A stretch of DNA of 64,000 nucleotides from positions 372,001-436,000 of the forward strand of contig NC_011981.1 of NCBI RefSeq assembly GCF_000016285.1. The letters are read 5' to 3'. This stretch comes from Allorhizobium ampelinum S4 (lineage in GTDB: Bacteria > Pseudomonadota > Alphaproteobacteria > Rhizobiales > Rhizobiaceae). This document shows positions 3,429-34,705 of this stretch, piece by piece. Position 1 is the first letter of the stretch; each line of letters opens with the position of its first letter. Both the position numbers and the translations under genes were made by a program. A model generated the notes under the pieces. That model searched no databases and was not told the origin of the DNA. It was given only the letters and a program-made list of their open reading frames with translations.

Positions 3429-4295
3429 ATGACTTACAAAAGCATCAGAGCACTGGAGCGCGGTATAGACGTGTTGCAGTACCTCAATACGGTTAAAGGA
3501 GCTGCACCGCCGGAGATTGCTGAAAACGTCAATCTTCCACGTCCTACAGTCCATCGAATTCTTGAAACGCTGAGCGAACTCAACTTGGTCTATCGCAGTC
3601 AGCTTGGAGACGAATATCGTCTTAGCTCTGGCGTGCAGCGATTGGCGGGCAACAGGTCATCCGTGCGGCTGAATTGGATTGATGAAATCGCCTTGCCAGC
3701 ACTGCTCGAACTCACATCGGAGATCATTTGGCCGTCGGACATTGCTGTTTGCCACAAAGCTGCAATGATCATCCAGGGAACCACACATCGCATCAGTCCC
3801 ATGTCGTGCGATGTCGGAATGGTGGGCAATCGGCGTTCCATGCTGATGAGCCCGCTGGGCCGTGCCTATCTCAGTCACTGCCCGGATGACGAGCTAAAGT
3901 CTATTCTTTGCGCTCTGAACGCGTCATCGGCATCTGAGGATAAGGGCGCGCGCGATCGCGCTTTCATTAAGGAGATTATTGAAACGGGTCGTCGTGATGG
4001 TGTTAGCGCCTGCAACGAACGACCGCACCCGCGATGCGCCAGCCTTGCTGCACCCATTCGCTTGAATGGGAAGGTACTTGCCTGCATGAACGTTGTCTGG
4101 CGGGCCAATATGCTCACGATTGAAGACGCAATGGATCAGATACGTGACCCATTGCTCGCGACGCGTGACCGGATCGAAGCTCAACTCCACGAACAGTTCG
4201 CACGACCGGCGCTGGGCTCGACAAGCTTCCCTGAAACATACACCCTGCGGACGGGAACGCGTGATCGCTTGCCTCACAGTCTAGCCCTTGCTTGA
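3429..4295 (+). CDS. IclR-family transcriptional regulator
   Basis: The 288-residue protein has an N-terminal winged helix-turn-helix (RGIDVLQYLN, then PRPTVHRILETLSELNLV) and a C-terminal IclR effector-binding domain. The frame is open from 3342, but the ATG at 3429 follows a strong GGGAGGAG site and gives the normal IclR length. It lies upstream of an F420-oxidoreductase-like gene in the same direction, and of the flavin hydroxylase operon at 5643, which it may control. The effector is unknown; IclR proteins of catabolic islands usually bind aromatic acids. Confidence 0.88.
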   Translation: MTYKSIRALERGIDVLQYLNTVKGAAPPEIAENVNLPRPTVHRILETLSELNLVYRSQLGDEYRLSSGVQRLAGNRSSVRLNWIDEIALPALLELTSEIIWPSDIAVCHKAAMIIQGTTHRISPMSCDVGMVGNRRSMLMSPLGRAYLSHCPDDELKSILCALNASSASEDKGARDRAFIKEIIETGRRDGVSACNERPHPRCASLAAPIRLNGKVLACMNVVWRANMLTIEDAMDQIRDPLLATRDRIEAQLHEQFARPALGSTSFPETYTLRTGTRDRLPHSLALA

Positions 4296-4310
4296 TTGCA
4301 TCAATATGGC

Positions 4311-4340
4311 CCGCCCACGAGGGGTTTCCTTCGTGGGCGG
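4311..4340. other. perfect 10-bp stem-loop between iclR-like and reductase genes
   Basis: CCGCCCACGA (4311-4320) and TCGTGGGCGG (4331-4340) are exact inverted repeats with a 10-base loop. No T-run follows, so it is more likely an mRNA-stability or attenuation hairpin than a full terminator. Confidence 0.5.
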
Positions 4341-4369
4341 CCCCTATTGGCTCAGAGGAAGGACAAAGC

Positions 4370-5011
4370 ATGACCAAAACACTTGGATTTCTTGGGGCAG
4401 GTCGCCTCGCACAGATGCTCGCACCAAAAGCGATAGCCGGTGGCTGGCGGGTTATTCTTTCGAACTCGCGTGGACCTGAAACATTGGCTGATTTGGTCTC
4501 TCAACTCGGACCAAATGCCAGCGCAGCCACCAGCAAAGACATGGTGTTGGCCGCCGACATTATTATCCTTGCAATCCGGTGGCCACAAATCGCCGATGCC
4601 ACAGCTGGTCTGCCCTGGGACGGCAAAACCGTGATTGATGCCACCAACAATCGTCTCGGCCCGAAGCCTGAAGATGTCATCGTCATCGGCGATGCAATCG
4701 CCAGTGAACTCGTCGCAGGTTATCTACCCGGTGCAAAGCTGGTCAAGGCTTTCAATCATGAGCCGATCCCTGTGTTCGACAAAACACTTCCTCCCGCCGG
4801 GGATGAAAGCGTGCTTTTTCTGGCTGGCGCAGATGCGGAGGCAAAGAAGCAAGTCGCGCAATTGATGCGGGATCTGAAGGCAACACCGATTGATCTTGGC
4901 GCGATTGACGAAGGCGGCTTGCTCATTGCCATGGGTGGCCCGCTGACGAACAAGTTCAAACTATACACACCCGCTGAAGCCGAAGCTGAAACAAAAGCTG
5001 CGCTTGTCTAA
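4370..5011 (+). CDS. NADPH-dependent F420 reductase-like (F420_oxidored fold) oxidoreductase
   Basis: The 213-residue protein begins with a Rossmann motif GFLGAGRLAQMLA and has the size and layout of bacterial homologues of NADPH:F420 oxidoreductase and ProC N-domains. In organisms without F420 these proteins act on other, mostly undefined substrates. The ATG at 4370 follows GGAAGGAC and is preferred to the longer frame from 4292. It follows the IclR gene in the same direction and ends just before an AT-rich terminator-like hairpin. Confidence 0.75.
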   Translation: MTKTLGFLGAGRLAQMLAPKAIAGGWRVILSNSRGPETLADLVSQLGPNASAATSKDMVLAADIIILAIRWPQIADATAGLPWDGKTVIDATNNRLGPKPEDVIVIGDAIASELVAGYLPGAKLVKAFNHEPIPVFDKTLPPAGDESVLFLAGADAEAKKQVAQLMRDLKATPIDLGAIDEGGLLIAMGGPLTNKFKLYTPAEAEAETKAALV

Positions 5012-5051
5012 TACGAAGACACGGAGAACATGACTGTTCGTATTCTATTTT

Positions 5052-5096
5052 CGAATATCTCAATCATCTGATGCATTTGAGATATTCGGAATTTTG
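5052..5096 (+). terminator. AT-rich terminator-like hairpin after the F420-reductase-like gene
   Basis: CGAATATCTCAA (5052-5063) and TTGAGATATTCG (5077-5088) are perfect 12-bp inverted repeats with a 13-base loop, followed by GAATTTT. The T-run is short and the stem AT-rich, so strength is uncertain; it could also be an operator. Confidence 0.5.
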
Positions 5097-5178
5097 CAAG
5101 ACGAGGATGCGTCGATCTCTTCGAGTCCTTGTATAAGATCTGTTATTCTTCCCGAGAGAGAGCCGCCTCCGGCTCAGG

Positions 5179-5240
5179 ATTGTGTGCGACATTCGTTTCG
5201 ACGGAGAGCATTGTGCGATAATTATCGTTCGCACACAATT
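5179..5240. promoter_or_regulatory. cluster of TGTG(TG)CGA half-sites, candidate operator
   Basis: ATTGTGTGCGA near 5179-5189 is mirrored exactly by TCGCACACAAT near 5229-5239. A third partial copy, TGTGCGA, at 5212-5218 pairs with TCGCACA at 5229-5235. Three related half-sites in about 60 bases upstream of a catabolic operon and downstream of an IclR gene suggest a regulator-binding region. No experimental motif is known to me for this. Confidence 0.4.
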
Positions 5241-5548
5241 TGAATATTCCAGCCTTAATTACCAGTGCGAGATCCTCGGTCATCTACCAATATTGACCAG
5301 AATGATATGTTGCCAGCGCATAGGCGCCCTTGGTCAGCATGCCTCAAGGATGGGCAATGATCAGCCCAGAACTGCAAGCAACACACTTTCCCAAAGGCAA
5401 ATCTAGACCAACTGACCCTGCGCTTTGAACAGGACGGCGCTGTGCCATACATCAAACATGGGACACCCGCTCACCATACTTGGGCGCTCTTCAGGCATAG
5501 ATGCAACCTATTGAATTTTATATATATTTATATTCGACAATCGATTTT

Positions 5549-5569
5549 TGTACGCACGACGGACGTACA
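5549..5569. promoter_or_regulatory. TGTACG-N9-CGTACA palindrome, candidate operator
   Basis: TGTACG (5549-5554) and CGTACA (5564-5569) form an inverted repeat 74 bases upstream of the GTG start of the flavin hydroxylase and just downstream of an AT-rich stretch. The position is what would be expected for an operator overlapping the promoter of that operon. Confidence 0.35.
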
Positions 5570-5642
5570 TTGTCTGATCCTTGTTCGTCTTAAGTCGGCC
5601 TGACACGATGAATGAAGAGTTCAAAACAAGGAGCATTCAGAC

Positions 5643-6932
5643 GTGGTCGCTGCCAAAGAACGCACCGTGGTACTTGCCACAAAGAGCACTCAAAAACAGG
5701 GGACGCCATTGGCGCAACCTGAACCCGGCCTCACACCAGAGCAAATTATACAGCGCGCCATTGACTTACGGCCGCTTTTGCTCGACGGCCAAGCCGACGC
5801 AGAAGAGCGAGGCACATATTCTCCTGAAATGCATGAGCGTTTTCGCAAGGCCGGTTTCTATCGAATCCTGCAACCTGTGATGTATGGCGGCTATGAGTTT
5901 GATCTGACCGTCTTTTCTCGTGTCATCGTCGAAATTGCACGGGGCTGCCCCGGTTCTGGCTGGTGTCTCTGCCTTGCTTCCGGGCATGCCGTAAATGCTG
6001 CAGCTTTGTTTGATAAGGCTGGCCAAGACATTATCTTTGGCAATGACGGCGAATTTGCAGCCCCGGCCCGCGGCGTGCCAGGTGGGACAGCCACGGAGTG
6101 CGACGACGGCTGGATCATTGACGGAACCTGGGATTATTGCTCCGGTTCGCCCTATAGCACACATGCTATCGTTGGCGTTCGCATCGCGGGTCCAGCGAAA
6201 GACGGACCGCCTGAACTCGGAATTGCAATGGTTCCAAGATCTGGGTGGGAGATGATCGACAACTGGCGCGACTTCATCGGCATGCGCGCCAGTGGCTCAA
6301 ACAGTATCCGCATCGACAAGCAATGGATACCAAAGGCTCTGCTCGTTCGCCAAAACTTCTTCGCCGTCAATATCGATGGTGGCACCGAAGGTTACAAATT
6401 GCATGGCAACTCCATGTATTCAGGCCGTATGTTCGGCTTCTTCCAGGCGGAGATCACCTCAATTTTGGTTGGCGTTGGCTTTGCTGCGCTGGACGAATTC
6501 GAACGGATTGTGGGACTGCGGGCAGGGGCTCCGAAACTCGGACCTCCGATGCCGGGTGTACCGGACTTCCACCGCCCCTACGGCGTCGCACTGGGCATGC
6601 TTGAAATGGCATCCAATGCTCTGGCAGCCGGCACTCGTTCCTATCTCGACTATTGCGAACGTGGCGTGAAGGACCCCAGCGCTTATACGGAGTTCGATGA
6701 TCTGCGCATTCAAGCAGGGTTGCAGCACGCAGCGCATCTGTCGATGGACGCGGTGGAGATCCTCTACAGTGCTGCCGGTACGAGCACCTCAGCGAAAAAT
6801 GGCTCGCGGCTTCAGCGCTATTACCGTGACATTTCCATGGCGCGCACCAATCCCGGCCTGCAATTCGACAAAACGGCCATGCAGTTGGCTGCGCGGAGAT
6901 TTCCAGAAGGACCGCAAGGCCCCCGCCCGTAA
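5643..6932 (+). CDS. flavin-dependent aromatic hydroxylase, acyl-CoA dehydrogenase fold (group D monooxygenase oxygenase component)
   Basis: At 429 residues it matches the oxygenase components of two-component phenol hydroxylases such as p-hydroxyphenylacetate 3-hydroxylase C2 and HsaA. Family-like segments are AGFYRILQPVMYGGYEFDL and EIARGCPGSGWCLCLASGH in the N-terminal half and an acyl-CoA-dehydrogenase-type helical C-terminal domain (SAAGTSTSAKNGSRLQRYYRD). Such enzymes use reduced FMN/FAD supplied by a partner reductase, and the next gene is a flavin reductase. The start is GTG with AAGGAG nine bases upstream. It is clearly a paralogue of the hydroxylase at 17696. The substrate is unknown, probably a phenolic. 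Confidence 0.85.
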   Translation: MVAAKERTVVLATKSTQKQGTPLAQPEPGLTPEQIIQRAIDLRPLLLDGQADAEERGTYSPEMHERFRKAGFYRILQPVMYGGYEFDLTVFSRVIVEIARGCPGSGWCLCLASGHAVNAAALFDKAGQDIIFGNDGEFAAPARGVPGGTATECDDGWIIDGTWDYCSGSPYSTHAIVGVRIAGPAKDGPPELGIAMVPRSGWEMIDNWRDFIGMRASGSNSIRIDKQWIPKALLVRQNFFAVNIDGGTEGYKLHGNSMYSGRMFGFFQAEITSILVGVGFAALDEFERIVGLRAGAPKLGPPMPGVPDFHRPYGVALGMLEMASNALAAGTRSYLDYCERGVKDPSAYTEFDDLRIQAGLQHAAHLSMDAVEILYSAAGTSTSAKNGSRLQRYYRDISMARTNPGLQFDKTAMQLAARRFPEGPQGPRP

Positions 6933-6982
6933 GCAACCGGAATTGGAAAACAGGCGCACGCGAAACTCAACGGGAGGTGGGT

Positions 6983-7618
6983 ATGCAACATCACGTTCAC
7001 ACCAACAATGATAAGGTTGCAGCGGACACCAAGAGTGTTCTTCCTGCAACGGACTGGACATCAGAACCACAGCAGATAGAGACCTCGGCGGTAACAAGCG
7101 GGGGCGGGCTGACCGCAGCCGAGGAAAAAGCCGCTCTGAAAGCGAAATTCATCTCTGGCATGGGGCGGGTTGCGGCTCCCGTTTCTATTGTTGCCACCGA
7201 TGGCCCGGCAGGGCGTGCGGGCGTCACAATCTCAGCAATGAGTTCCGTCTCTGCCGATGGAGACCGACCGACCCTGATGATCTGCCTCAACCAGTCCTCA
7301 CGTACATGTCAGGCCCTCGAGAAAAACCGCCATTTCACTCTCAATGTTCTGAATGCACGCAAGCATATCCCCATAGCCGATGCCTTTGCAGGCCGTTTCG
7401 GGACGTTTTTGCCCGATAAATTCGCGATGGGCGACTGGAAGACCAGCCGATTCGGGATTCCAGAGTTGAATGAGGCGACAGCGGTGTTCCATTGCCAAGT
7501 CAACTTCACCCAGATTGTTGGCACACATATGCTCATTATCGCAGAAGTTGACGAGGTCAGTGAAGCTGAAGGAGCACGGGCTCTCGTTTACTGTAGCCGT
7601 GAATATCGTTGCCCTTGA
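6983..7618 (+). CDS. NAD(P)H:flavin oxidoreductase (flavin reductase-like domain), hydroxylase partner
   Basis: The ATG at 6983 follows GGGAGG; the frame also has an upstream GTG at 6977 that overlaps that site and is less likely. The first 50 or so residues are an unusual hydrophilic extension. From about residue 55 a flavin-reductase-like domain is seen (GVTISAMSSVSADGDRPTLMICLNQSS, then FTLNVL), the FMN-binding split-barrel found in HpaC-type reductases. It would supply reduced flavin to the hydroxylase encoded 50 bases upstream and perhaps to the second hydroxylase at 17696, which has no reductase of its own. Confidence 0.85.
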   Translation: MQHHVHTNNDKVAADTKSVLPATDWTSEPQQIETSAVTSGGGLTAAEEKAALKAKFISGMGRVAAPVSIVATDGPAGRAGVTISAMSSVSADGDRPTLMICLNQSSRTCQALEKNRHFTLNVLNARKHIPIADAFAGRFGTFLPDKFAMGDWKTSRFGIPELNEATAVFHCQVNFTQIVGTHMLIIAEVDEVSEAEGARALVYCSREYRCP

Positions 7619-7701
7619 GCGGCTTGCGGGAGGGAGCAAGCCGCAAAATTCAAAGGGAATAATCGTGCAATTTTGATCGCTTTCACACTCTGAAAGCCGT
7701 C

Positions 7702-7729
7702 ACCGATCAGGGCGCGACCCCTGATCGGT
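7702..7729. other. 11-bp perfect stem-loop between reductase and outer-membrane barrel genes
   Basis: ACCGATCAGGG (7702-7712) and CCCTGATCGGT (7719-7729) are exact inverted repeats around a 6-base loop. No T-run follows on the plus strand, so it may be a processing or stabilising hairpin, or an operator for the barrel gene that starts 90 bases later. Confidence 0.5.
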
Positions 7730-7819
7730 CATCGTTGATGAATGCAGGCCCGAATGGGAGCGGGTCAACGATTAGCTATGTCCAAAAAAACGACATGCAT
7801 AACTTGGGGAGGACAAGGA

Positions 7820-10147
7820 ATGTGTTCAAAGGCAGGCTTATGTCTTGCTGCGAGTTGCTGTGCCCTCACTTTGGGGATGGTTTGCGCGGGAGCGTCCGCA
7901 CAGGATGGCGCAGTTAAAATAGCAAAGACAAACCGAAATCCAACGACGGACGCGCAGAAGCTTGATTGTCCCGGCGGTGACCAGACAAAGCGTTCGAAAG
8001 ATCCCAACACCAAGAATTGCCCTGATCTGACGTTGGTGGACAATGGTTCAAGTGTGGGTCCAAGTGCAGCTCCAGGCCAGGGCCCCGGTTCCGGAGCAGG
8101 CCCAGGCCCTGGTCAAGGGCCGGGGCCGGGCACCGGTCCGGGGGCCGCATCTGGACCCGATGGATTGCCGCCGCCGCCCTTCGGAATGATCGTGCCACGT
8201 AAATCGTTCAATCTCGGTCCCCCGCTTGGTGGACCTCCGGCGGTGGGCAACATCAATCCGATCTTTGTGATGCCACCGGGCATGGTTGGAGCGCTGAAAC
8301 CGGATCAAATTCTGATCGGCCTTGGGGACTTGGCCAAACCGCGCCCGGCTCCGGACGGCTTCAATCATATCGGGACTGAGATCTACACCATGGGAGGGTC
8401 CTTCGGGCGCAATCGCGAGACCGTCCAGACCGGCAATTCCAAAGACAATTTCTCTACCTATTTCGCCGGTAGCAGAGTCCAGGATCCGAGCTGGCGTGAT
8501 AATACCGACAGTAAACAGTACGAATTCTATGGTGACCTTGGTTGGCGAAATGAGACGTCAGCTCTGCACCTTTCCTTGAGTGGCCAGGACCTTAAGTCCT
8601 CCGGCAACGGCCTGACACCGGCCGAAATGCTTGCGAAGGACCGTTCAAGTTCCTTCATAGCGCCAAGCGGCGACACGGACAGACGATGGAAGATACAGCT
8701 TTCCGGCGAGCATGAGACGGACTCAGGTTGGAACGTGAATGGCAAAACCTACATTGGTCACGTGTCACGGACCAAGCAATGGGCAGATGGTGAAACCCCG
8801 CAATCCTGCGCCGACAACGCAGCGACACTTTGCAACATGATGGGCTCTCCATACCTGACGCTGAGCGGTGATCGCTTTCCTTTATATTCCAGTTCCTATC
8901 GTTATGCTTCGCTTACCAATTACAGTGAAGACGCTTACACCTACGGTGCATCACTCGAGGGACGAGTCAGCGATACCCTTTTGGGGCGGGCGAACGATTT
9001 CGTCATTGGGGCCGCACTCGACGGATCCACGACCTCTGGTACGGTTTCGAGAAGCCTGGGTGAATATACCAGCGACTATGTCTACACCAATGACCAGGGA
9101 GTTTATCAGACAACCTCGGCAGATTTGCGAGCGCTTTATTTCTCGCTTTATGCTGCAGATCAGCTCGCGGTGACGGATCGGCTGACGGTTGGCAGTGCGC
9201 TGCGATTTAACGTTTCAGACCTCAATCGCTACAACGGTTCGGCAACGAACGTCACCTACGACTATGATCTGAACATGCACAAAACCGACTACAGCGTCGA
9301 TCCGTCAATCGGCCTCACCTACAAGTTCAACAGTGATTTGGTGGGATATGCTGGCTACAACCGCGAAAGCCGGGCTCCTACTTCTTTTGGGACGATGTGC
9401 AGCAATCTCGCATCAACCTGTGCGTTTCCCAACTTCCCGATCGCCGACGAACCGCTTTTGCAGACGCACTCGAACAATTTCGAAGCTGGCCTTCGCGGAC
9501 AAAACACCGTACTCGGCGATGCAACCCTCTCATGGAATGTGCGGCTGTTTTCGCAGATGACCTCGGATACCTATTGGCTGGTATTGCGTGAAACACGCCC
9601 GATGTTCAGCAATGTAGGCGACAGCTGGCGCCGGGGCGTTCGCTTCAATGCGGCCCTGGAAACCGGTCCCTGGACAATCGGCCTTGACTACATCCTGCAA
9701 AAATCAACCTTCGAAAAGGAATTTACGGAATTCAGTTCGGATAATCCCTCTGCAGATGCCATGGGCAATATCACTGTTCCCAAGGGCTCGGAAATGCCCA
9801 ATATCCCAAATCAGATACTGAACGTGAGTGTCGATTATGCCGTCAATGATCGTTTGAAAATTGGCGCTTTGGGTACGGGAGTTGCTGGAAGCTATGCTCA
9901 ATTTGACGAAAACAATACGCTCAAAAAGTCAGACCCTTATGCGCTCTTTTCACTGAATGCGAGCTATAAGCTCAGTGACAATGCTGAAATTTTCGGGCTC
10001 ATAACCAATGTTTTCGATACGAAATATAACGCAATGGCAGCGCTTATAAAAGTCAACTCCATCCCCAGTTTGGGCCTGACAAATTCGTTGGGTTACATTC
10101 CCGGCGACGGTCGCGCCTTCTATGCCGGGCTTCGAGTGACATTCTGA
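7820..10147 (+). CDS. TonB-dependent-receptor-type outer-membrane beta-barrel with no recognisable plug
   Basis: The ATG at 7820 follows GGGGAGGACAAGG; the frame is open from 7742 but that leader is not signal-like. Residues 1-27 form a cysteine-rich signal peptide ending ASA/Q. Residues of about 79-115 are a Gly/Pro-rich tract (PGQGPGSGAGPGPG and similar). From about residue 175 to the end there are alternating beta-strands with aromatic girdles (for example YEFYGDLGW, YASLTNYSEDAYTYGASLEG, VGYAGYNRESRAPTSFG) and a C-terminal RVTF ending in Phe, as in TonB receptors. The segment MGGSFGRNRETVQTGN looks like the first barrel strand after a plug, yet the roughly 130-residue plug with its usual motifs is not found, and no TonB box is clear. 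It is in the hydroxylase operon context, suggesting uptake of the island's substrate. Confidence 0.75.
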   Translation: MCSKAGLCLAASCCALTLGMVCAGASAQDGAVKIAKTNRNPTTDAQKLDCPGGDQTKRSKDPNTKNCPDLTLVDNGSSVGPSAAPGQGPGSGAGPGPGQGPGPGTGPGAASGPDGLPPPPFGMIVPRKSFNLGPPLGGPPAVGNINPIFVMPPGMVGALKPDQILIGLGDLAKPRPAPDGFNHIGTEIYTMGGSFGRNRETVQTGNSKDNFSTYFAGSRVQDPSWRDNTDSKQYEFYGDLGWRNETSALHLSLSGQDLKSSGNGLTPAEMLAKDRSSSFIAPSGDTDRRWKIQLSGEHETDSGWNVNGKTYIGHVSRTKQWADGETPQSCADNAATLCNMMGSPYLTLSGDRFPLYSSSYRYASLTNYSEDAYTYGASLEGRVSDTLLGRANDFVIGAALDGSTTSGTVSRSLGEYTSDYVYTNDQGVYQTTSADLRALYFSLYAADQLAVTDRLTVGSALRFNVSDLNRYNGSATNVTYDYDLNMHKTDYSVDPSIGLTYKFNSDLVGYAGYNRESRAPTSFGTMCSNLASTCAFPNFPIADEPLLQTHSNNFEAGLRGQNTVLGDATLSWNVRLFSQMTSDTYWLVLRETRPMFSNVGDSWRRGVRFNAALETGPWTIGLDYILQKSTFEKEFTEFSSDNPSADAMGNITVPKGSEMPNIPNQILNVSVDYAVNDRLKIGALGTGVAGSYAQFDENNTLKKSDPYALFSLNASYKLSDNAEIFGLITNVFDTKYNAMAALIKVNSIPSLGLTNSLGYIPGDGRAFYAGLRVTF

Positions 10148-10271
10148 CGGTTATAAAGAGCGCAATTTGACCCGCAGGAAAGTGCACGCTTCTATAGCGA
10201 ATGCGGCCTAAAGCCTCCTGATATATGTATACTTCCGGCTGCTTAATGCTCGCATTCGGAGAGACCGCGTT

Positions 10272-10312: not shown

Positions 10313-10375
10313 GTCTTGCCCCGATTGCTGCCCGAAACTTTAAAAACGTCAATCAAAAAAAGGATAGGATTTCGA

Positions 10376-26731: not shown

Positions 26732-26743
26732 CGATATTGACGT

Positions 26744-27445: not shown

Positions 27446-27504
27446 AGTCTAGGAAGCCGGGTTCCATTTTATCCTCGATAAACTCTAGCTTAGAGATCAT
27501 CTTC

Positions 27505-28440
27505 ATGAAACTTGCATTTTTCGATTCCTACAAACTTGGCGTCGTGCGAGGTGACGTCATCATCGACGTTTCGTCCGCAGTCGAGACAATTGCGCATGTG
27601 GGGCCACACGACCTCATGCAAGGATTGATCGAGCGGTTTGATGAGTTTCGCAGCGCGTTGGAAGCCGCTGCAGACGCTGGTGAGCCGATCAGCTTGGCAT
27701 CGGTTGCGCTGCGAGCGCCTCTGCCGAAGCCCAGCAATATCGTCTGCATGGCCGTGAACTACATGGAGGACGGAACACTTGCGGAGCCGCCCGCCATCAA
27801 TGCGTTCCACAAGGCACCAACGGCTGTCATTGGGCCGGGCGGAACCATGGTCCTGCCTGACATTCCCGCAAGGACCTTTGAAGGGGAAGCTGAGATGGCC
27901 TTGGTGATCGGCAAGCGTGCGCATCAGGTTTCTGCTGAAAACTGGCGCGACTATGTTTTCGGTTACGTGAATTTCATCGATGGTTCGGCGCGTGGCACCC
28001 TCCCTGAAAAGAACAATTATTTTCAGATGAAATCGCGTGACACGTTTGCCCCGATTGGTCCCTGGATAGTCACCGCCGATGAAATCCCGGATCCGCAATC
28101 CTTGCAGGTTCGCCTTTGGGTCAATGGCACGCTCAAGCAGGATTTCAACACCGATGACATGGCGCACAAGATCCCGCGTTGCATTGAGTGGCTAAGCCAT
28201 ATCCAGGTTTTGGAGCCGGGCGATGTTGTGGCCACAGGCACAAATCACCGGGGTCTCAATGCACTTCAGGATGGAGATAGCGTAGAGTTGGAAATCGAAG
28301 GTCTTGGCCGGCTTGCGATCAATGTGCGCGATGACCTGAAGAGAACCTGGCCACGCGACACACGTGTTGAGCTTATGGCCAAAGGCGTGAAGGGCCCAGC
28401 CGTTCAACTGACAGGCAAACACGCGCCCGTCAGCCCATGA
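27505..28440 (+). CDS. fumarylacetoacetate hydrolase (FAH) family protein, second copy
   Basis: ATG at 27505 gives 311 residues, with a usual FAH N-terminus (KLAFFDSYKLGVVRGDVIID); the frame is open from 27433 without support. FAH landmarks are SNIVCMAVNYME, the metal site TFEGEAEMALVIGK, GYVNFIDGSARG and LEPGDVVATGTNH. It differs from the family member at 21954, so two related hydrolytic steps, or two branches, are likely. It lies in the GlcG-VOC-FAH-IclR-CMD run. Confidence 0.88.
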   Translation: MKLAFFDSYKLGVVRGDVIIDVSSAVETIAHVGPHDLMQGLIERFDEFRSALEAAADAGEPISLASVALRAPLPKPSNIVCMAVNYMEDGTLAEPPAINAFHKAPTAVIGPGGTMVLPDIPARTFEGEAEMALVIGKRAHQVSAENWRDYVFGYVNFIDGSARGTLPEKNNYFQMKSRDTFAPIGPWIVTADEIPDPQSLQVRLWVNGTLKQDFNTDDMAHKIPRCIEWLSHIQVLEPGDVVATGTNHRGLNALQDGDSVELEIEGLGRLAINVRDDLKRTWPRDTRVELMAKGVKGPAVQLTGKHAPVSP

Positions 28441-28595
28441 TTTGATCAGGGGAGGGAGGTGGGGCACCTTGCACACCTTCCCTTCGGTGATTAGCGTGCA
28501 TTTTTTTGGTCGAGTCTCTCTGCGTGGGATAGGTGCGTCGCAACGGTGCGATGACCCTCACGGATCGGCGCAAACAACTCTACACGCGAGCCTGC

Positions 28596-29369
28596 ATGTC
28601 AAGCCTAACGAAAATGCTCCTGATCCTTGATCTGTTTTCGGTTGATAAGCCGATTTGGTCAGCTGACGAGATCATCCAATATTGCGGGCATTCGCGTCCC
28701 ACCGGCTATCGCTATGTCAAGGAACTCTGCGACGCTGGTTTGTTGCGCCGCGCAGAGGGTGGCTATTCTCTTGGTCCGCGCGTGATTGAACTCGATTACT
28801 ATATCCGCCAATGCGACCCGCTGTTGATCGCATGTCGGCCAGTTATGGTGCGGGTGGCGCAGGAATCGGGCTGCGATGTGCTGCTGGCCAGCATGTATGG
28901 TACGAAGATAATGGCGGTTCACCAGGAGTTGGCGCACGAAACAGGTCAAATCGCATTCGGTCGAGGACGGCCGATGCCGCTGTTTCGCGGCGGCGGATCC
29001 AAGGTCCTGCTGGCGTCGATGACAGCTTCGCAGCTCAAGAAGCTCTATGATCGTTATGGAGCGGAAATAGCCGAGGCGGGGCTTGGAGCCACATGGGCAG
29101 ATTTTCGCAAGCAGATGCTGAAATATCGAAATGACGGCCATGTTGTCTCGATTGGTGAGCTTGACCCGAATGCTGCTGGTGTCGCGATTCCGATCCCTGT
29201 CGGTGACGCACTCGACCCGGCGGCCCTGGTGATTTTAACAACGCGCTCGCGCTTTGATCTTATGGAAAAAGCACTGCTGGTCGATATGGCGATGAATGCG
29301 GCCCGGCAGATCGAAACATCGATGCGCGGCAACCGTGAAGTTCAGGCGAAAGCCCTCCTGCTCTCGTGA
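28596..29369 (+). CDS. IclR-family transcriptional regulator (short N-terminus type)
   Basis: ATG at 28596 begins MSSLTKMLLILDLF, the usual start of a known IclR subgroup; the longer frame (GTG at 28533, ATG at 28551) adds residues without family support. The winged helix is ADEIIQYCGHSRPTGYRYVKELCDAGLL. The effector domain follows, with VVSIGELDPNAAGVAIPI. It has the same direction as the FAH gene and the CMD gene that follows 18 bases later. Of the three IclR proteins in the island, this is the most divergent. Confidence 0.83.
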   Translation: MSSLTKMLLILDLFSVDKPIWSADEIIQYCGHSRPTGYRYVKELCDAGLLRRAEGGYSLGPRVIELDYYIRQCDPLLIACRPVMVRVAQESGCDVLLASMYGTKIMAVHQELAHETGQIAFGRGRPMPLFRGGGSKVLLASMTASQLKKLYDRYGAEIAEAGLGATWADFRKQMLKYRNDGHVVSIGELDPNAAGVAIPIPVGDALDPAALVILTTRSRFDLMEKALLVDMAMNAARQIETSMRGNREVQAKALLLS

Positions 29370-29387
29370 CACTCAGGAAATACGCGC

Positions 29388-29936
29388 ATGCGTTTGACCG
29401 ATCTACAATTGGAAGACATGTCACCGGCACAGAAAAATGTGGCCGAGGAAGCTAAATCTGGCCGACGCGGTCACATTCCAGCACCGCTCAGGGCGTGGAT
29501 CCACAGCCCCGAATTGGGCGCAAGGGCGCAACGCCTCGGCGAATTCGTGCGCTATAACACAGAGCTTGGTGCTGATCTGTCCGAACTTGCGATTCTTGTG
29601 GTTGCGCGCGACTGGGGCGCCGTTTTCGAGTGGGATGCGCATAAGCGGGAAGCGTTGAAAGCGGGCATAGAGCCGCATGTCATTGAGGCAATCCGAACAC
29701 GCACCAGTCCCGCCTTTCCAAGCAACAAAGCCCGCATCGTCTATTGTTATACAAAGACATTATTGGAGACCCGCTTCATCCCAAGCCCGCTTCATGACGA
29801 GGCTGTGACTGTTCTGGGGCAAGCGGGCCTAGCAGAACTCGTGGGTGTGGTTGGCTACTACACGTTTGTTGCTATGACCCTCAATGCCTTTGAGATCGGG
29901 GTAGAAGAGGGCTCTGGGGATTTGGGGGTGAGCTGA
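29388..29936 (+). CDS. carboxymuconolactone decarboxylase (CMD) family protein
   Basis: The 182-residue protein has the CMD core LSELAILVVARDWGAVFEWDAHKREALKAGIEPHVIEAI with no cysteine pair, so it is not a peroxidase-type AhpD. It is 18 bases after the IclR gene and likely co-transcribed. With the proteins at 18925 and 21334 it makes three CMD-family proteins (four domains) in one island. Confidence 0.8.
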   Translation: MRLTDLQLEDMSPAQKNVAEEAKSGRRGHIPAPLRAWIHSPELGARAQRLGEFVRYNTELGADLSELAILVVARDWGAVFEWDAHKREALKAGIEPHVIEAIRTRTSPAFPSNKARIVYCYTKTLLETRFIPSPLHDEAVTVLGQAGLAELVGVVGYYTFVAMTLNAFEIGVEEGSGDLGVS

Positions 29937-29960
29937 TCCTTGCACTGCTTGTCGGTGAGG

Positions 29961-31052
29961 TCAGTTTTTGTTTTTCGTTCTACCGCGCAACAGCCGTCGA
30001 ACCGGGAAAAACTCAATGCCGGTGCGCTCTGAGAACAGGCCCCAGATACCGCGTGGTGCAAACAGCATTGTTAAAATTGCCAGTGCGCCCAGCAATAACA
30101 GATACCATGAGCCAAAATCTGACAGAAGATTTTGCAGGAAAAACAAAATGATCACGCCAACGATGGGCCCTTCGATGGTGCCGATTCCACCCACCACGAC
30201 GATAAACAGTACATAGGCTGTCCAATCTGTGAGTGAAAAGGCGGCATCGGGTGAAATTCGGGCTTTCTGAAGATAGATCAGTGCGCCAGTCATGCCGGTC
30301 AGGGCTGCTGTGAGAAGATAAATCGTCAATTTCAGACGAAGGGCATCCACGCCGAGTGCCGTTGCCGCTGTTTCATTGTCGCGCACAGCAGCAAGGCCCA
30401 GTCCTTGCTTGCTGCGCAACAGCCGATAGACGAAAACGATGGTGAAACCCGTCAACAACAATGCGAGCCAATAGGCCAGTGAATCCAGCGCAACAGCCGG
30501 TTTCATGCCGAACAATGCGCTGATGGTGGAAACGCCAAACATCTCGCGGGTCGCCTCGCGTGGCAGCGACGCCCCGGTGCCGCCGCCCAGCGTTTTCCAT
30601 TGGGCAAACACCAGCCGCCCGACTTCTGCAATCACCCAGGTGCCGATGGCGAAATAGGAGCCGTGGAGACGGAAGGTGAAGAGGGCGGTGGGCAGTGCCA
30701 CGATCGTGGCAAAGACGCCCGCCAGCGGAATGGCAATCAGCGGATTGACGCCAAGCAGAATGACCATTGCAAAAAGCGCATAGGCCCCACAACCGACAAA
30801 CAGTTGTTGGCCGACCGAAATCAATCCGGCATATCCGGCAAGCAGGTTCCAGCTCTGTGCCAATGTCAGCATCGTCAGGATGTAAAACAGATTTTGCACT
30901 GTGCCACGCGACACGAAAAACGGAGCGAAGGCCAGCACTGCAAAGACCAGTATGAGTCCTATCGTAAAGGCTGAAGATAGCCGTGTTCGTGTTTGAATGC
31001 GCCAGCCGGTTGGTGGATTCTCTTGGGTTGGGACGATGTTGGTGGATGTCAT
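29961..31052 (-). CDS. branched-chain amino acid-type ABC transporter permease (LivM-like)
   Basis: The 363-residue protein has about nine to ten membrane segments and a LivM core (GYAGLISVGQQLFVGCGAYA; AVRDNETAATALGVDALRLK). The ATG at 31052 is preferred because GAGGA lies seven bases before it. The ATG at 31070, overlapping the LivH-like stop, is also possible. The C-terminal LFAPRGIWGLF matches the family's usual end. It is the last gene of a five-gene importer for amino acids or, in this context, aromatic acids. Confidence 0.88.
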   Translation of the reverse strand: MTSTNIVPTQENPPTGWRIQTRTRLSSAFTIGLILVFAVLAFAPFFVSRGTVQNLFYILTMLTLAQSWNLLAGYAGLISVGQQLFVGCGAYALFAMVILLGVNPLIAIPLAGVFATIVALPTALFTFRLHGSYFAIGTWVIAEVGRLVFAQWKTLGGGTGASLPREATREMFGVSTISALFGMKPAVALDSLAYWLALLLTGFTIVFVYRLLRSKQGLGLAAVRDNETAATALGVDALRLKLTIYLLTAALTGMTGALIYLQKARISPDAAFSLTDWTAYVLFIVVVGGIGTIEGPIVGVIILFFLQNLLSDFGSWYLLLLGALAILTMLFAPRGIWGLFSERTGIEFFPVRRLLRGRTKNKN

Positions 31053-31062
31053 CTGCTGATCC

Positions 31063-31926
31063 TCAATCATTGGCGCGGGGAAACAAGCCGCGTGGCCTGA
31101 CCAGAAGCACGATCAAGAAGGCGATATGGCCTGCCAAAATCTGCCATTCGGGATTGATGGCTGCACCGAGCGTTTGAGCGATACCCAAAACAACACCGCC
31201 CGCCAGTGTGCCCCACAGTGATCCGAGTCCGCCAATGATGACCGCCTCGAAGGCATAGATCAGCCGCGATGGCCCAGCGGTGGGGTCGAAATTGGCGCGG
31301 GTGCTGAGATAAAGAGCCGCGATTGTGACCACAACCATGGCAAGCCCTGTTGCCATGGCAAAGATACGGTGCGGCCGCACGCCCATCATGCCAGCTGTCA
31401 CCGGATCATCGGATGTGGCCCGAAATGCCCGACCAAGCGAGGTACGATAGATCAACTGGTTGAGCGCGATAATGACGATGATCGCCGATCCGAACGTCAA
31501 AAGCGGCATGATACCGATGTTCAGTCCCGCCAAAGGCAGCGATGCGGTTTCCAAAACGCCTGTCGAAAGACGACGACTATCGGCGGTGAAGCCTTCCAGA
31601 AGGCCATTTTGGATCACGATGGAGAGGCCGAACGTGACCAGCAGTGGCGGCAGGATATCCTTGCCGAGTGTGCGGTTCAAAAGATAGGTCTGCAACAGCC
31701 AGCCAAGCCCAAACATCAGCGGGATGGCAATCAGGGCTGCAAGAAACGGGTTGATCCCGAAGGTATTGGCGAGCATCAGGATCAGGAAAGAGGCGAGGAC
31801 AATCAGGTCGCCATGCGCAAGATTGACCAGTCGCATAATGCCGAAGACCAGACTGAGACCTGCGGCAAACAGCGCGTAGAGGCCGCCCAGCAGCGCGCCT
31901 TGCAGAATGGTATCAAGCCAGTTCAT
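31063..31926 (-). CDS. branched-chain amino acid-type ABC transporter permease (LivH-like)
   Basis: ATG at 31926 follows GGAG and gives 287 residues. LivH features are ALLGGLYALFAAGLSLVFGIMRLVNLAHGD near the N-terminus and AFEAVIIGGLGSLWGTLAGG near the end. It overlaps the LivF-like gene by 14 bases and precedes the LivM-like gene by 10. Confidence 0.9.
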   Translation of the reverse strand: MNWLDTILQGALLGGLYALFAAGLSLVFGIMRLVNLAHGDLIVLASFLILMLANTFGINPFLAALIAIPLMFGLGWLLQTYLLNRTLGKDILPPLLVTFGLSIVIQNGLLEGFTADSRRLSTGVLETASLPLAGLNIGIMPLLTFGSAIIVIIALNQLIYRTSLGRAFRATSDDPVTAGMMGVRPHRIFAMATGLAMVVVTIAALYLSTRANFDPTAGPSRLIYAFEAVIIGGLGSLWGTLAGGVVLGIAQTLGAAINPEWQILAGHIAFLIVLLVRPRGLFPRAND

Positions 31927-32638
31927 GGGATTCGGCTCCGAAATACGCGGCATGAATGTCGTTGCGATCGAGATCGGACGGGCGGCCCGTCAGTGTGATG
32001 CGGCCCTCCATCATGCAATAGACGCGATCTGCCTGTTTCAGCGCCTGACCAATATCTTGCTCGACAATGATGATAGCAGCACCTGCGGCGCGGATGCGTG
32101 GGAATGCGGCATAGATATCCTTGATCACCACCGGGGCAAGGCCAAGGCTCAGCTCATCGCACAACAGGACCTCGGGATTGGACATCAGCGCCCGGCCAAT
32201 CGCAACCATTTGCTGTTGACCACCGGAAAGCGCTGTCGCAGGTCTGTGGCGGCGTTCCTGCAATATCGGGAAAAGCTCGTAAATACTGGCAAGCGACCAT
32301 GGGCCATTGACCGTGCGGCCATATTGGCCGATCAGCAAATTTTCCTCGACGGTGAGCGAGGGGAAAAGCTTGCGCCCTTCCGGCACCAGCGCAATGCCAC
32401 GGGCCATCACATCGGGTGCCGCCAATGCACCGATGGACACGCCTTGGTGCAGGATGGCGTCTGGCTCAGACGCCAGCACCCCGACAATGGCACGCATCAA
32501 GGTGGACTTTCCAGCGCCATTGGCCCCAATCACCGCAATCATTTCTCCGGCGTCCAGCCTGAGATCGACGCCGAACAGAGCCTGAAAGTCGCCGTAGAAT
32601 GCCGTGAGGCCGCGTGTTTCGAGCAGACTGGTCATCAT
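31913..32638 (-). CDS. ABC transporter ATP-binding protein (LivF-like)
   Basis: This 241-residue ATPase has Walker A GANGAGKSTL, signature LSGGQQQM, a Walker B-like VLLCDELSLGL and a switch-type C-terminus usual for LivF. The start ATG at 32638 overlaps the LivG-like stop in an ATGA arrangement; a second ATG follows directly. It energises the LivHM-type permease pair. Confidence 0.92.
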   Translation of the reverse strand: MMTSLLETRGLTAFYGDFQALFGVDLRLDAGEMIAVIGANGAGKSTLMRAIVGVLASEPDAILHQGVSIGALAAPDVMARGIALVPEGRKLFPSLTVEENLLIGQYGRTVNGPWSLASIYELFPILQERRHRPATALSGGQQQMVAIGRALMSNPEVLLCDELSLGLAPVVIKDIYAAFPRIRAAGAAIIIVEQDIGQALKQADRVYCMMEGRITLTGRPSDLDRNDIHAAYFGAESHELA

Positions 32639-33354
32639 ACCTCCAGACCCAGATAGATTTCGCGAACCTCTCGCGAGGCCATGATCGCCTGCGGTTCGCC
32701 AATGCCCAGCACCCGGCCGAAGTTCAGCACAAGGATGCGCTCCACGACGGCTGTCAGCGCGTGCAGCACATGTTCTATCCAGATGACTGCGACGCCACGC
32801 TGGTGAACGCTCCTTATGGTGGCGACGAGTTGACGACATTCGCCTTCCGTCAATCCACCCGCTATCTCGTCAAGAAGCAGCAGTTTTGGCTTTGTGGCCA
32901 GTGCGCGGGCCAGCTCCAGCCGCTTGCGCTCCAGAAGGCCCAGTGAGCCTGCAAGTGCATTGGCTTTGGCAATCAAACCGGTTTCAACAAGAATGTCGGC
33001 ACAGAAATCGGTCATCTCTGCCTCACTGGACTGCGCGCCAAAGGCCCCGGCAACCAAGAGGTTTTCAAAGACGGTGAGCCGCTCAAAGGGCTGGGGGATC
33101 TGGAAAGTTCGTCCCATTCCGGCAAAACAACGCTGCATGGGCGGCATGGTCGTCACGTCGCGGCCATCAAACCGGATTGTTCCAGACGCGACCGAAAGAT
33201 TGCCACTGATCAGATTGAACAAGGTGGATTTGCCCGCGCCATTCGGTCCAATAACCCCCAGTGCCTCGCCCTCTTGCACGGCAAAATCAATGTTGTCAGC
33301 AACCACAATGGCACCAAACGATTTCGATACGCCACTCAGTTCAAGGATTGGCAT
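32635..33354 (-). CDS. ABC transporter ATP-binding protein (LivG-like)
   Basis: The 239-residue ATPase has Walker A GPNGAGKSTLFN, LLLLDEIAGGLTEGE as Walker B, and the LivG insertion GMGRTFQIPQPFERLTVFENLL. The ABC signature is degenerate (GSLGLLERKRLEL), as often in LivG. AGGAG precedes the ATG. It follows the binding-protein gene after a hairpin at 33379-33402. Confidence 0.92.
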   Translation of the reverse strand: MPILELSGVSKSFGAIVVADNIDFAVQEGEALGVIGPNGAGKSTLFNLISGNLSVASGTIRFDGRDVTTMPPMQRCFAGMGRTFQIPQPFERLTVFENLLVAGAFGAQSSEAEMTDFCADILVETGLIAKANALAGSLGLLERKRLELARALATKPKLLLLDEIAGGLTEGECRQLVATIRSVHQRGVAVIWIEHVLHALTAVVERILVLNFGRVLGIGEPQAIMASREVREIYLGLEV

Positions 33355-33378
33355 TCAAAGGCTCCTGTTGAAAACGCA

Positions 33379-33402
33379 CCCGCTCCGCAGTGTGGGAGCG
33401 GG
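33379..33402 (-). terminator. intercistronic hairpin between the binding-protein gene and livG-like
   Basis: CCCGCTCC (33379-33386) pairs with GGAGCGGG (33395-33402). On the minus strand the stem is followed by TGCGTTTTC. Such partial terminators usually raise the level of the binding-protein mRNA over that of the membrane components. Confidence 0.6.
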
Positions 33403-33412
33403 ACGTTTGCGC

Positions 33413-34705
33413 TCACGCGAGAGGTTCGAGCTTGCCGCCCAGCGGCACAGACGGAATGAGGCCGTTTTCGACCACCACAAGGTCATAGCCGCCGCCGGTC
33501 TTGAGCCGCCATTGACCCCCGACCAGCGGGGTCTTGGCCACATTCTTGCTGGCAAACGGCGGCAGCTTGTCGCTGCCCCAGGCAATGGGGCCGACCAGTG
33601 TGTCGAGCTTGGTTTCACCAATCGCTTTGGCTACAGAGTTGGCGTCGCTCACATCCTCGGCCCGCTTCATCACATCGACGGCGAGTTCGAAAAGCGCATG
33701 GGCAAAGCCGATAGGCTGCGTCCAGGGACGCCCTGTTGCCTTGGTGAAGGCCGCCGCGACCTGGGCCGACGTTTGGCCGGTGAGCGAGGATTTAAACGGA
33801 TGCGTTGGTGTCCACCAGACTTCCGTGGAGAGGTTGTGACCGGCATTGCCGAGCGCTTCCACGGCTTGCGGAAACAGCAGCGCTTTGCCGATGGAGGCGA
33901 TCTTCGGCTTCAATCCCTGCTGTTTGGCCTGATTCCAGAATGTGGTGAGATCCGGCGGGATCATCACTCCGGTCAGAATATCGGTGTTCTTCTGCTTGAA
34001 GGCGTTGATCTGGGCAGAAAAATCATCCGTCAGATTCTGGTAGCGCCCGGTGTCCGTCAGTGAATAGCCAAGCTTTTCAAGAACCGGCGGGAAGCCGACA
34101 ACCTTGTCGCCCCAGGCATTGCCATCGCCATCATTGGGAAACAGGCCGCCGACCTTTTTGTCGGTCGCAAGCTGGCTCCACATGCCGGTGTAAACCGCGA
34201 TGATATCTTCCAGCCCCCAAAAGAAGTGGTAGGCATAATTAAACGGCTTCCAGCTTGCAGGATCGGAGGGATTGCCTTGCTGACCGATGAACCAGGATTG
34301 CCAGGGTGCGACAGTGGAAATACACGCCACACCTTCCCCCTCGCAGGTGGTTGAGACAGGATTGGTCGTTTCGGGCGTCGAGGAGACCAGCATCAAATTG
34401 ACCTCGTCATCGACGATCAATTCCTTGGCCACTTGAGCGGCCCGGTTGGGGTTTGACTGGCTGTCCTTGACGATGACCTGATAGTTGAGGCCCATGGCTT
34501 TGGTTGCTGTCATAAACGCATCGATGACAAACTTGTCGGCTTCGCCGAAGCCCGCGAGTGGGCCAGTCTGGGGGCTGACATAGCCAAGTTTGATGGCCAC
34601 ATCCTTGGCAATCGCTGGCGCGGCCAAGCCCGAGGTTGCAAGCACAGCGCCACTGACGGCGGTTGTCTTGATAAAATCACGTCTGGTGAATATCGGTCGT
34701 CCCAT
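33413..34705 (-). CDS. ABC transporter substrate-binding protein, LivK-like, with Tat-type signal
   Basis: The frame is open from 34807. ATG at 34705 (MGRPIFTRRDFIKTT) is chosen because GGGGAGG lies nine bases upstream; ATG at 34711 is too close to it. The N-terminus TRRDFIKTTAVSGAVLATSGLAAPAIA is a twin-arginine signal peptide. The mature part is a periplasmic type I binding fold (GYVSPQTGPLAGFGEA). It is the first gene of the importer operon. A Tat export signal is unusual for Liv binding proteins but common in rhizobial ones. The ligand is unknown. Confidence 0.88.
   Translation of the reverse strand: MGRPIFTRRDFIKTTAVSGAVLATSGLAAPAIAKDVAIKLGYVSPQTGPLAGFGEADKFVIDAFMTATKAMGLNYQVIVKDSQSNPNRAAQVAKELIVDDEVNLMLVSSTPETTNPVSTTCEGEGVACISTVAPWQSWFIGQQGNPSDPASWKPFNYAYHFFWGLEDIIAVYTGMWSQLATDKKVGGLFPNDGDGNAWGDKVVGFPPVLEKLGYSLTDTGRYQNLTDDFSAQINAFKQKNTDILTGVMIPPDLTTFWNQAKQQGLKPKIASIGKALLFPQAVEALGNAGHNLSTEVWWTPTHPFKSSLTGQTSAQVAAAFTKATGRPWTQPIGFAHALFELAVDVMKRAEDVSDANSVAKAIGETKLDTLVGPIAWGSDKLPPFASKNVAKTPLVGGQWRLKTGGGYDLVVVENGLIPSVPLGGKLEPLA

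What the first reader, a model, noticed from the sequence alone, without database searches (positions are those of the whole stretch)
3429..34705. Large catabolic island of unknown substrate with three IclR regulators and its own import systems
About 25 genes point to one degradation programme: a barrel, an ABC importer and an MFS carrier for uptake; three flavin hydroxylases of two types; a VOC-fold protein; two FAH hydrolases; a dienelactone hydrolase; PrpD; a maleate-isomerase-like enzyme; and thiolase-DUF35-CoA-transferase for the acid stage. The MhpA-type, VOC, FAH, CMD and PrpD set resembles, from memory, the flavonoid (Fde) A-ring degradation clusters. I recall no characterised pathway with this full gene content, so a new substrate or a branched route is possible.
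Basis: inference. Interest (0 to 1): 0.72.

Follow-up and report, generated by a model that had tools for sequence, protein, structure and literature searches.

The report
Grapevine bacterium's plant-phenol degradation island
A 37-kilobase block of genes on a plasmid of the grapevine bacterium Agrobacterium vitis looks like a ready-made kit for taking up and breaking down a still unidentified plant phenol, and related kits occur, rarely, in distant soil bacteria.

Summary
The window is Agrobacterium vitis plasmid-type DNA and the genes listed are there. The unit is larger than stated: one A. vitis plasmid lacks it, with its flanks meeting within about 7 bp, so it runs from about 3.13-3.24 to 40.67 kb.

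The upper genes form a conserved programme: 24 of 34 island genes have a counterpart in one Pseudomonas marginalis block. Its core (flavin hydroxylase, VOC protein, FAH hydrolase, IclR) recurs in Variovorax and Paraburkholderia. I infer hydroxylation, extradiol opening and hydrolysis of a resorcinol-type plant phenol. The substrate is unknown; a flavonoid A-ring is plausible but untested, since no Fde sequence was reachable.

Two oddities: Gln replaces the second metal His of extradiol dioxygenases in 45 of 48 aligned VOC relatives, and the 'thiolase' lacks a nucleophilic Cys. Ten searches of an open-licence library showed no matching pathway. New variant of a known kind.

The parts
3132..40668 (.). 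whole island
   Evidence: right edge 40668/40669 from the plasmid without the island (T60/94 pAt); left edge where homology to the VAR03-1 (3132) or VAR06-30 (3243) plasmid begins
3429..4295 (+). IclR-family regulator 1
   Evidence: Pfam HTH_IclR/IclR_C; start from annotated relatives
4370..5011 (+). F420/NADP-oxidoreductase-like protein; 55% identical counterpart in P. marginalis
5643..6932 (+). HsaA-like flavin monooxygenase, oxygenase 1
6983..7618 (+). flavin reductase partner
7742..10147 (+). TonB-dependent outer-membrane receptor
   Evidence: no counterpart in the P. marginalis block
10376..11233 (-). IclR-family regulator 2
11454..12209 (+). maleate-isomerase/arylmalonate-decarboxylase-like protein; two Cys motifs conserved in 6 of 6 sequences aligned
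12226..13377 (+). thiolase-like protein (SCP2/lipid-transfer type) without Cys in the nucleophile stretch
13377..13799 (+). DUF35 partner (ChsH2-type zinc ribbon plus OB fold)
13841..15226 (+). 3-oxoacid CoA transferase, A and B subunits fused
15277..15768 (+). SRPBCC/polyketide-cyclase-like protein
16188..17486 (-). MFS transporter
17696..18919 (+). HsaA-like flavin monooxygenase, oxygenase 2
18925..19692 (+). double-CMD-domain protein (annotated start in relatives near 18937)
19685..20398 (+). dienelactone-hydrolase-family protein
20475..21329 (+). short-chain dehydrogenase
21397..21894 (+). CMD-family protein 1
21954..22808 (+). FAH-family hydrolase 1 (core cassette)
23057..24568 (-). group A (MhpA-like) flavin monooxygenase (core cassette)
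24552..26033 (-). MmgE/PrpD-family protein
26288..26731 (+). HbpS-like protein
26827..27360 (+). single-domain VOC protein, putative ring-opening dioxygenase with Gln in the metal triad (core cassette)
27505..28440 (+). FAH-family hydrolase 2; nearest solved relative maleylpyruvate hydrolase
28596..29369 (+). IclR-family regulator 3 (core cassette)
29388..29936 (+). CMD-family protein 2
29961..34693 (-). Liv-type ABC importer (two permeases, two ATPases, binding protein)
35029..36786 (-). FAD monooxygenase, probable resorcinol-type hydroxylase
36815..37888 (-). maleylacetate reductase (iron ADH family; name from annotated relatives)
37990..38940 (+). LysR regulator of the lower module
39297..40133 (-). 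intradiol dioxygenase (hydroxyquinol 1,2-type, inferred)

Best explanation
A single catabolic island of about 37.5 kb on an Agrobacterium vitis megaplasmid, for degrading a plant phenol that carries a resorcinol-type (1,3-dihydroxy) ring. Three parts. (a) A core cassette of FMO, VOC, FAH1 and IclR3, extended by PrpD, FAH2, the maleate-isomerase-like protein and CMD2. The group A flavin monooxygenase adds a hydroxyl to make a catechol or triol; the single-domain VOC protein opens the ring in the extradiol manner; the FAH hydrolases cut the resulting diketo acids; the two-Cys racemase-family enzyme isomerises a cis double bond of the acid. (b) A second oxygenation and side-chain module: two HsaA-like oxygenases with a flavin reductase, the DLH, SDR and CMD proteins, and a CoA transferase with a Cys-less thiolase-like/DUF35 pair, which activates a keto acid and cleaves it by a retro-aldol or thiolytic reaction. 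(c) A lower module common in rhizobia: Liv importer, resorcinol-type hydroxylase, hydroxyquinol dioxygenase, maleylacetate reductase and LysR, feeding 3-oxoadipate. Shown here: gene content, the island's edges relative to other plasmids, conservation and separability of modules, residue patterns. Inferred: every reaction, their order and the substrate class.
For: A plasmid without the block, with its flanks meeting within about 7 bp. Upper programme conserved in P. marginalis: 24 of 34 island genes with a BLASTP counterpart in one block, 19 of them at 47-69% identity, and contiguous in Agrobacterium a22-2 without the importer or lower module in the 80 kb compared. Core of VOC, FMO, IclR and FAH together in Variovorax EBFNA2 and VAI-C and Paraburkholderia PGU19; FMO, VOC and FAH in Sphingomonas tagetis and Variovorax 2u118. 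FMO and PrpD relatives share 7 identical longest-contig lengths between the two homolog lists, as expected if they lie on the same contigs. FAH2 is nearest to maleylpyruvate hydrolase among solved structures; the racemase-family protein to putative maleate isomerases, with two Cys motifs in 6 of 6 aligned sequences. The VOC protein keeps five of six positions aligned with the catechol-dioxygenase active site (site residues recalled). Counterparts of the hydroxyquinol dioxygenase (53%) and maleylacetate reductase (51%) also adjoin the P. marginalis block.
Against: No substrate, activity or expression data. The VOC lacks the second His metal ligand, so dioxygenase activity is not assured. The lower module is separable: in a22-2 its monooxygenase lies on another contig, so its functional link to the upper part is not proven. 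In P. marginalis neighbouring genes that look like a hydroquinone pathway could explain the hydroxyquinol genes independently. Only one plasmid without the island was examined, and its stretch does not match the window's own left flank. No operator word shared by three or more of 16 intergenic stretches was found. Several assignments rest on family resemblance below curated cut-offs.
Confidence: 0.5

Rival explanations
1. It is a flavonoid (flavanone, dihydroflavonol or flavan-3-ol) A-ring pathway of the Fde kind: C8 hydroxylation, extradiol A-ring opening, hydrolysis, then lactone opening, CoA activation and cleavage of the leftover keto acid. This is a special case of the best explanation.
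For: Hydroxylation then glyoxalase-fold ring opening matches what is reported for FdeE, FdeC and the ifc genes. DLH, CoA transferase and thiolase-like genes would suit a keto-lactone product (recalled chemistry). The host lives on grapevine, which is rich in flavan-3-ols (recalled).
Against: No Fde or Ifc sequence could be compared. The small cassette in Variovorax and Paraburkholderia sits beside transporters of kinds used for small acids (TTT binding proteins, MFS; that use is recalled). No enzyme specific to flavonoid C-rings was recognised in the scans.
Confidence: 0.3
2. The upper genes degrade a simple alkyl- or acyl-resorcinol or phloroglucinol (orcinol-type meta pathway): hydroxylation to a triol, extradiol cleavage, then two FAH hydrolases cutting trioxo and acylpyruvate acids. 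Also a special case of the best explanation.
For: Two FAH hydrolases plus FMO plus ring-opening enzyme fit the classical orcinol route (recalled). The minimal cassette occurs alone with small-acid-type transporters. A resorcinol-type module is attached.
Against: Does not explain the two HsaA-like oxygenases or the CoA transferase with the thiolase-like/DUF35 pair. No orcinol gene reference appeared in the search listing.
Confidence: 0.3
3. The block is two or more unrelated catabolic clusters side by side on a gene-rich plasmid, so there is no single pathway.
For: Modules are separable. Three IclR and one LysR regulators suggest several regulons. No shared operator was found.
Against: Upper genes stay together in Alpha- and Gammaproteobacteria with rearranged order. 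The whole 37.5 kb is missing as one block from one A. vitis plasmid and present in the others compared, and CG5 has upper and lower parts together too.
Confidence: 0.25
4. It is a steroid-type (Hsa) pathway.
For: HsaA is the best NCBIfam match of both acyl-CoA-dehydrogenase-like oxygenases; ChsH2-type DUF35 partner and lipid-transfer-like thiolase.
Against: 130 and 205 bits against a cut-off of 450; no HsaC- or HsaD-type partner was recognised in the scans.
Confidence: 0.03

Closest known systems
Fde naringenin pathway (Herbaspirillum seropedicae) and ifc isoflavone cluster (Variovorax V35)
   Same: Flavin hydroxylase followed by a glyoxalase-fold ring-opening enzyme
   Different: No sequence comparison was possible; ifc uses cupin enzymes IfcD1/IfcD2, which the island lacks; HsaA-like pair, PrpD, two FAH and the CoA transferase set are not mentioned for ifc in the Results read
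Rhizobial resorcinol/hydroxyquinol module with Liv importer
   Same: Same genes in the same order in Rhizobium SL42 (76.5% nucleotide identity over most of a 6.75 kb query); related sets in Martelella, Paracoccus and A. vitis T60/94
   Different: Here joined to the upper programme, which is not within 14 kb of it in SL42 and is replaced by another cluster in T60/94
E. coli mhp pathway
   Same: Group A flavin hydroxylase family (32% identity to MhpA)
   Different: E. coli partners mhpB-mhpF have no counterpart recognised in the island; FAH hydrolases instead
HsaAB and p-hydroxyphenylacetate two-component monooxygenases
   Same: Family and flavin reductase partner
   Different: Far below equivalog cut-offs; two oxygenases and one reductase in the island
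Type I extradiol dioxygenases
   Same: VOC fold and positions aligned with first His, catalytic His, His, Tyr and Glu
   Different: Single domain; second metal His is Gln in 45 of 48 aligned sequences

Membership tests
Fde flavonoid A-ring pathway | orthologs of FdeE and FdeC | not testable with these tools
   No reference sequence reachable; no Fde name among the rows shown (60 and the best 120 of 7110; most rows carry no name)
Fde flavonoid A-ring pathway | flavin hydroxylase, VOC-fold ring opener and FAH-type hydrolase encoded together | tested here: met
   (that FdeD is FAH-type is recalled)
ifc isoflavone cluster | cupin enzymes IfcD1/IfcD2 | tested here: not met
   No cupin domain in the 34 island proteins scanned
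MhpA 3-(3-hydroxyphenyl)propionate hydroxylase | closer to E. coli MhpA than to other group A enzymes, with mhp partners | tested here: not met
   32% to E. coli MhpA against 37-63% to the eight other FMOs compared; no mhpB-F partners recognised
Steroid HsaA | score above the HsaA equivalog cut-off (450 bits) | tested here: not met
   130 and 205 bits
Type I extradiol dioxygenase | 2-His-1-Glu metal site | tested here: not met
   His38 and Glu145 present, second His is Gln97
Type I extradiol dioxygenase | VOC fold with catalytic His/His/Tyr positions | tested here: met
   48 of 48 keep His80, His128, Tyr135; model matches VOC structures
Degradative thiolase | nucleophilic Cys | tested here: not met
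   No Cys in the GGSSY...AAAAI stretch in 3 of 4 orthologs and none at its start in all 4; P. marginalis has one Cys later in the stretch (expected place recalled)
Resorcinol/hydroxyquinol module | FAD monooxygenase, intradiol dioxygenase, maleylacetate reductase and LysR together | tested here: met
Resorcinol/hydroxyquinol module | activity on resorcinol and hydroxyquinol | not testable with these tools
   needs enzyme assay
Integrative mobile element | direct repeats at the edges, integrase inside | tested here: not met
   No exact direct repeat of 9 bp or more between the left edge of VAR03-1 and the right edge of the window; no integrase among the island proteins

The most novel reading that the evidence does not exclude
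The island encodes an undescribed complete route for a grapevine polyphenol unit (for example a flavan-3-ol from condensed tannin), in which the A-ring is opened by a new single-domain extradiol dioxygenase family with a His-Gln-Glu metal site and the remaining side chain is released by a Cys-less thiolase-like/DUF35 lyase. It gives the crown gall bacterium a private carbon source on its host.
Probability: 0.18. Interest if true: 0.68.

Novelty: new variant of a known kind. Interest (0 to 1): 0.45.

Why it matters
If the reading is right, A. vitis carries an exchangeable kit for a plant phenol of its host, built round a three-enzyme core that recurs in several bacterial groups. The Gln-for-His change in a whole family of putative ring-opening enzymes is a clean biochemical question: does an extradiol-type dioxygenase work with that metal site, or is this a different reaction? 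Testing one flavin hydroxylase could reveal the substrate.

Tried and rejected
Rejected: steroid pathway (scores far below cut-off); MhpA function (32% identity); the view that the ABC importer serves the upper genes; a mobile element with terminal direct repeats.

Led nowhere: an exact-word operator search over 16 intergenic stretches gave no gapped word in three or more; 5 of 20 shuffled controls gave 2 to 4 such words, so the test is weak. A motif taken from two conserved promoter blocks upstream of the two HsaA-like operons gave 9 matches against 4.1 expected (2 of 100 shuffles reached 9), and its best two sites are its own sources. Literature searches on catechin, grapevine, orcinol, hydroxyquinol and A. 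vitis catabolism listed no matching cluster; a search for extradiol enzymes with a Gln ligand listed 2 papers, neither read. The Variovorax 2u118 region, fetched as a possible ifc cluster, showed no ifc-like cupins by eye in the first 70 residues printed per ORF and was not scanned with profiles.

Distribution counts: PrpD at E <= 1e-40 in 1 of 398 Pseudomonadota genomes, the window's own. In Rhizobiaceae 7 of 394, of which only the own genome and one congener (72%, with two in-frame stops reported) are close; the other five are 30-35% identical. The P. marginalis PrpD at E <= 1e-60 in 1 of 298 genomes of its genus, itself. Against rarity: the protein database lists relatives at 50-54% named as Pseudomonas, Variovorax, Massilia, Rhodoferax, Polaromonas and Robbsia.

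Rows left out: the VOC count uses the window, 45 of the 60 homologs and two loci; 15 homologs were not aligned. The contig-length comparison used 117 and 118 typed lengths of 120 rows each; one FMO row and two PrpD rows have no length and two FMO rows were missed.

Full report
What it is in. The window lies in a 6.32 Mb genome of 7 contigs. The 24.7 kb tested matches A. vitis plasmid records at 92.7-97.2% identity: 5 of 72,556 records, from four strains if the two records of 514,751 bases are one plasmid. The four plasmids whose regions I fetched carry replicon type rep_cluster_287. I therefore take the window to be Agrobacterium (Allorhizobium) vitis plasmid DNA; this is by homology, since the contig itself is unnamed.

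The genes.

Boundaries. In A. vitis T60/94 plasmid pAt the alpha-mannosidase gene and a small hypothetical gene stand next to an NADH:flavin oxidoreductase gene, with no island between. Window homology to that stretch starts at window 40669 (T60 locus position 15773); the left flank of the VAR03-1 plasmid ends in it at locus position 15780. The two flanks thus meet within about 7 bp. Limits: this is one plasmid, the left flank compared is that of VAR03-1, and the window's own left flank (196-2975) has no match in the T60/94 stretch. In VAT03-9 that amino-acid gene set lies between the NADH:flavin oxidoreductase and the island, so it looks like a separate insertion. The left edge in the window is placed where homology to VAR03-1 (3132) or VAR06-30 (3243) begins. 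In the four island plasmids and the window the right neighbour is the mannosidase, while the left neighbour varies: NADH:flavin oxidoreductase in VAR03-1, the amino-acid gene set in CG78, VAT03-9 and the window, other genes in VAR06-30. No exact direct repeats of 9 bp or more were found at the edges; an integrase lies about 7 kb off in VAR06-30 and an IS6 transposase about 9 kb off in VAR03-1. Whether T60/94 lost the block or the others gained it is open. Another A. vitis record, CP146241.1, has the mannosidase region but no island match; I did not look at it.

Modules. T60/94 carries, elsewhere on pAt, the same importer (74-85% identity per protein), resorcinol-type monooxygenase (73%), maleylacetate reductase (60%) and two dioxygenases (45 and 54%), joined to a different upper cluster. 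Rhizobium SL42 has importer, monooxygenase, reductase, LysR and dioxygenase in the same order with no upper genes in the 14 kb flanks. In all, 414 plasmid records match some part of the 6.75 kb query and 14 hold at least 80% of it in one place. In Agrobacterium a22-2 the upper genes are contiguous on one contig, their two halves in swapped order, without the importer or lower module in the 80 kb compared; its monooxygenase homolog (91%) is on another contig, and whether an importer lies beside that one was not checked. In Rhizobium sp. CG5 upper and lower parts are together as in the window. So importer plus lower module form one unit and the upper programme another, joined in A. vitis and CG5.

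Upper programme. In P. marginalis one block of about 28 kb (19003-46564 of the 60 kb compared, on a 6.4 Mb contig) holds counterparts of 24 of the 34 island genes. The 10 missing are IclR2, the TonB receptor, HbpS, the five importer genes, the resorcinol-type monooxygenase and LysR. Five of the 24 are weak (MFS 35%, CMD2 27%, flavin reductase 32%, VOC 37%, IclR1 43%); the other 19 are 47-69% identical. Beside it lie an aldehyde dehydrogenase gene and a gene pair that looks to me like a hydroquinone dioxygenase; the NCBIfam scan gave only weak or no hits for the pair. PrpD of that block was found in 1 of 298 genomes of the genus sample, its own.

Core cassette. FMO (47-48%), VOC (37-42%), FAH1 (54-56%) and IclR3 (35-42%) relatives stand together in two Variovorax plasmids and one Paraburkholderia plasmid. 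FMO, VOC and FAH relatives lie within a few kb of each other in S. tagetis and Variovorax 2u118. Mesorhizobium L-8-3 has the FMO (40%) and an FAH (44%) with a VOC protein of 301 residues between them. Rhizobium ACO-34A has the FMO (43%) beside a VOC protein of 326 residues and, by annotation only, an FAH-type gene and a regulator. Seven longest-contig lengths are shared between the FMO and PrpD homolog lists, including records named Variovorax ginsengisoli and Massilia, which suggests FMO-PrpD linkage there too.

The VOC protein. In the alignment to catechol 2,3-dioxygenase the window protein keeps the first His (38), a His (80), a His (128), the Tyr (135) and the Glu (145); the residue aligned with the second metal His is Gln97. 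Among 48 aligned sequences Gln is found in 45 and His in 3; His38 is kept in 47 with one gap, the other four positions in 48. The VOC proteins next to the Variovorax, Paraburkholderia, P. marginalis and S. tagetis FMOs also have Gln (5 of 5). The longer VOC proteins of the Mesorhizobium, ACO-34A and T60/94 clusters show a His in the corresponding motif by eye. The model (mean pLDDT 87) matches VOC structures, single-domain glyoxalase-like ones first and then homoprotocatechuate dioxygenase. I did not place a metal or check the site in three dimensions. Residue roles in catechol dioxygenase are recalled.

Other enzymes. FAH2 is nearest to maleylpyruvate hydrolase among solved structures and FAH1 to a predicted hydratase of the FAH family. 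The racemase-family protein is nearest to putative maleate isomerases, then arylmalonate decarboxylases, and has two Cys motifs in 6 of 6 aligned sequences, which fits a two-Cys isomerase better than a one-Cys decarboxylase (recalled). PrpD is only distantly related to solved cis-aconitate decarboxylases. The thiolase-like protein scores above the cut-off of a generic thiolase-domain subfamily and is related to lipid-transfer/SCP2-type and benzoylsuccinyl-CoA thiolase structures. At the place where I expect the nucleophilic Cys (GGSSY) it has none in 4 of 4 orthologs; the P. marginalis protein has one Cys three residues further on. With its ChsH2-type DUF35 partner it may be an aldolase.

How it most likely works. 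See Best explanation. The logic for a resorcinol-type ring is that FAH hydrolases act on diketo acids, which arise when a ring with 1,3-hydroxyls is hydroxylated and opened; this is chemical inference. Flavonoid A-rings and simple resorcinols both fit, and the data do not separate them, so the first two rivals are special cases of the best explanation and their odds are not exclusive of it.

Literature. I read the abstract, outline and Results of PMC11069340 and passages of PMC11303751; PMC4440368 was searched for fde and five other terms with no hit. Everything else was seen as search listings with the start of abstracts. Searches listed no description of this cluster; the library holds open-licence papers only.

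Noticed in passing
L050 (A. vitis T60/94 pAt 44725-70161): A different upper catabolic cluster (FMO, FAH, two VOC proteins of about 295 residues, amidohydrolase, acetolactate-synthase-like enzyme, HsaA-like protein) joined to the same importer and hydroxyquinol module: the lower module seems to be shared by exchangeable upper pathways.
   Followed up: partly
window 5007-5137; also 53817-53934: Stretches of about 120-130 bp match other places in the VAR06-30 plasmid region at 76-85% identity; possibly a dispersed intergenic repeat.
   Followed up: no
L034-L035 (Rhizobium sp. CG5), 36095-42829 of the concatenated stretch L033-L035: Between PrpD and HbpS three extra genes, by eye a TRAP transporter, and a second racemase-family gene next to the FMO; the P. 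marginalis copy is closer to this second one (71%) than to the window's (57%), so the island in A. vitis seems to have lost it.
   Followed up: partly
G719:C22:53970-55466 (L041): The only other close PrpD relative in the Rhizobiaceae sample (72%) is reported with two in-frame stops; possibly a decaying copy.
   Followed up: no
window 196-2975: Ornithine cyclodeaminase, DAO-type oxidase and RidA genes just left of the island; another left neighbour in the VAR03-1 and VAR06-30 plasmids.
   Followed up: no
L032 (P. marginalis) 6519-9637: Aldehyde dehydrogenase and a gene pair that looks like a hydroquinone dioxygenase beside the P. marginalis block.
   Followed up: partly
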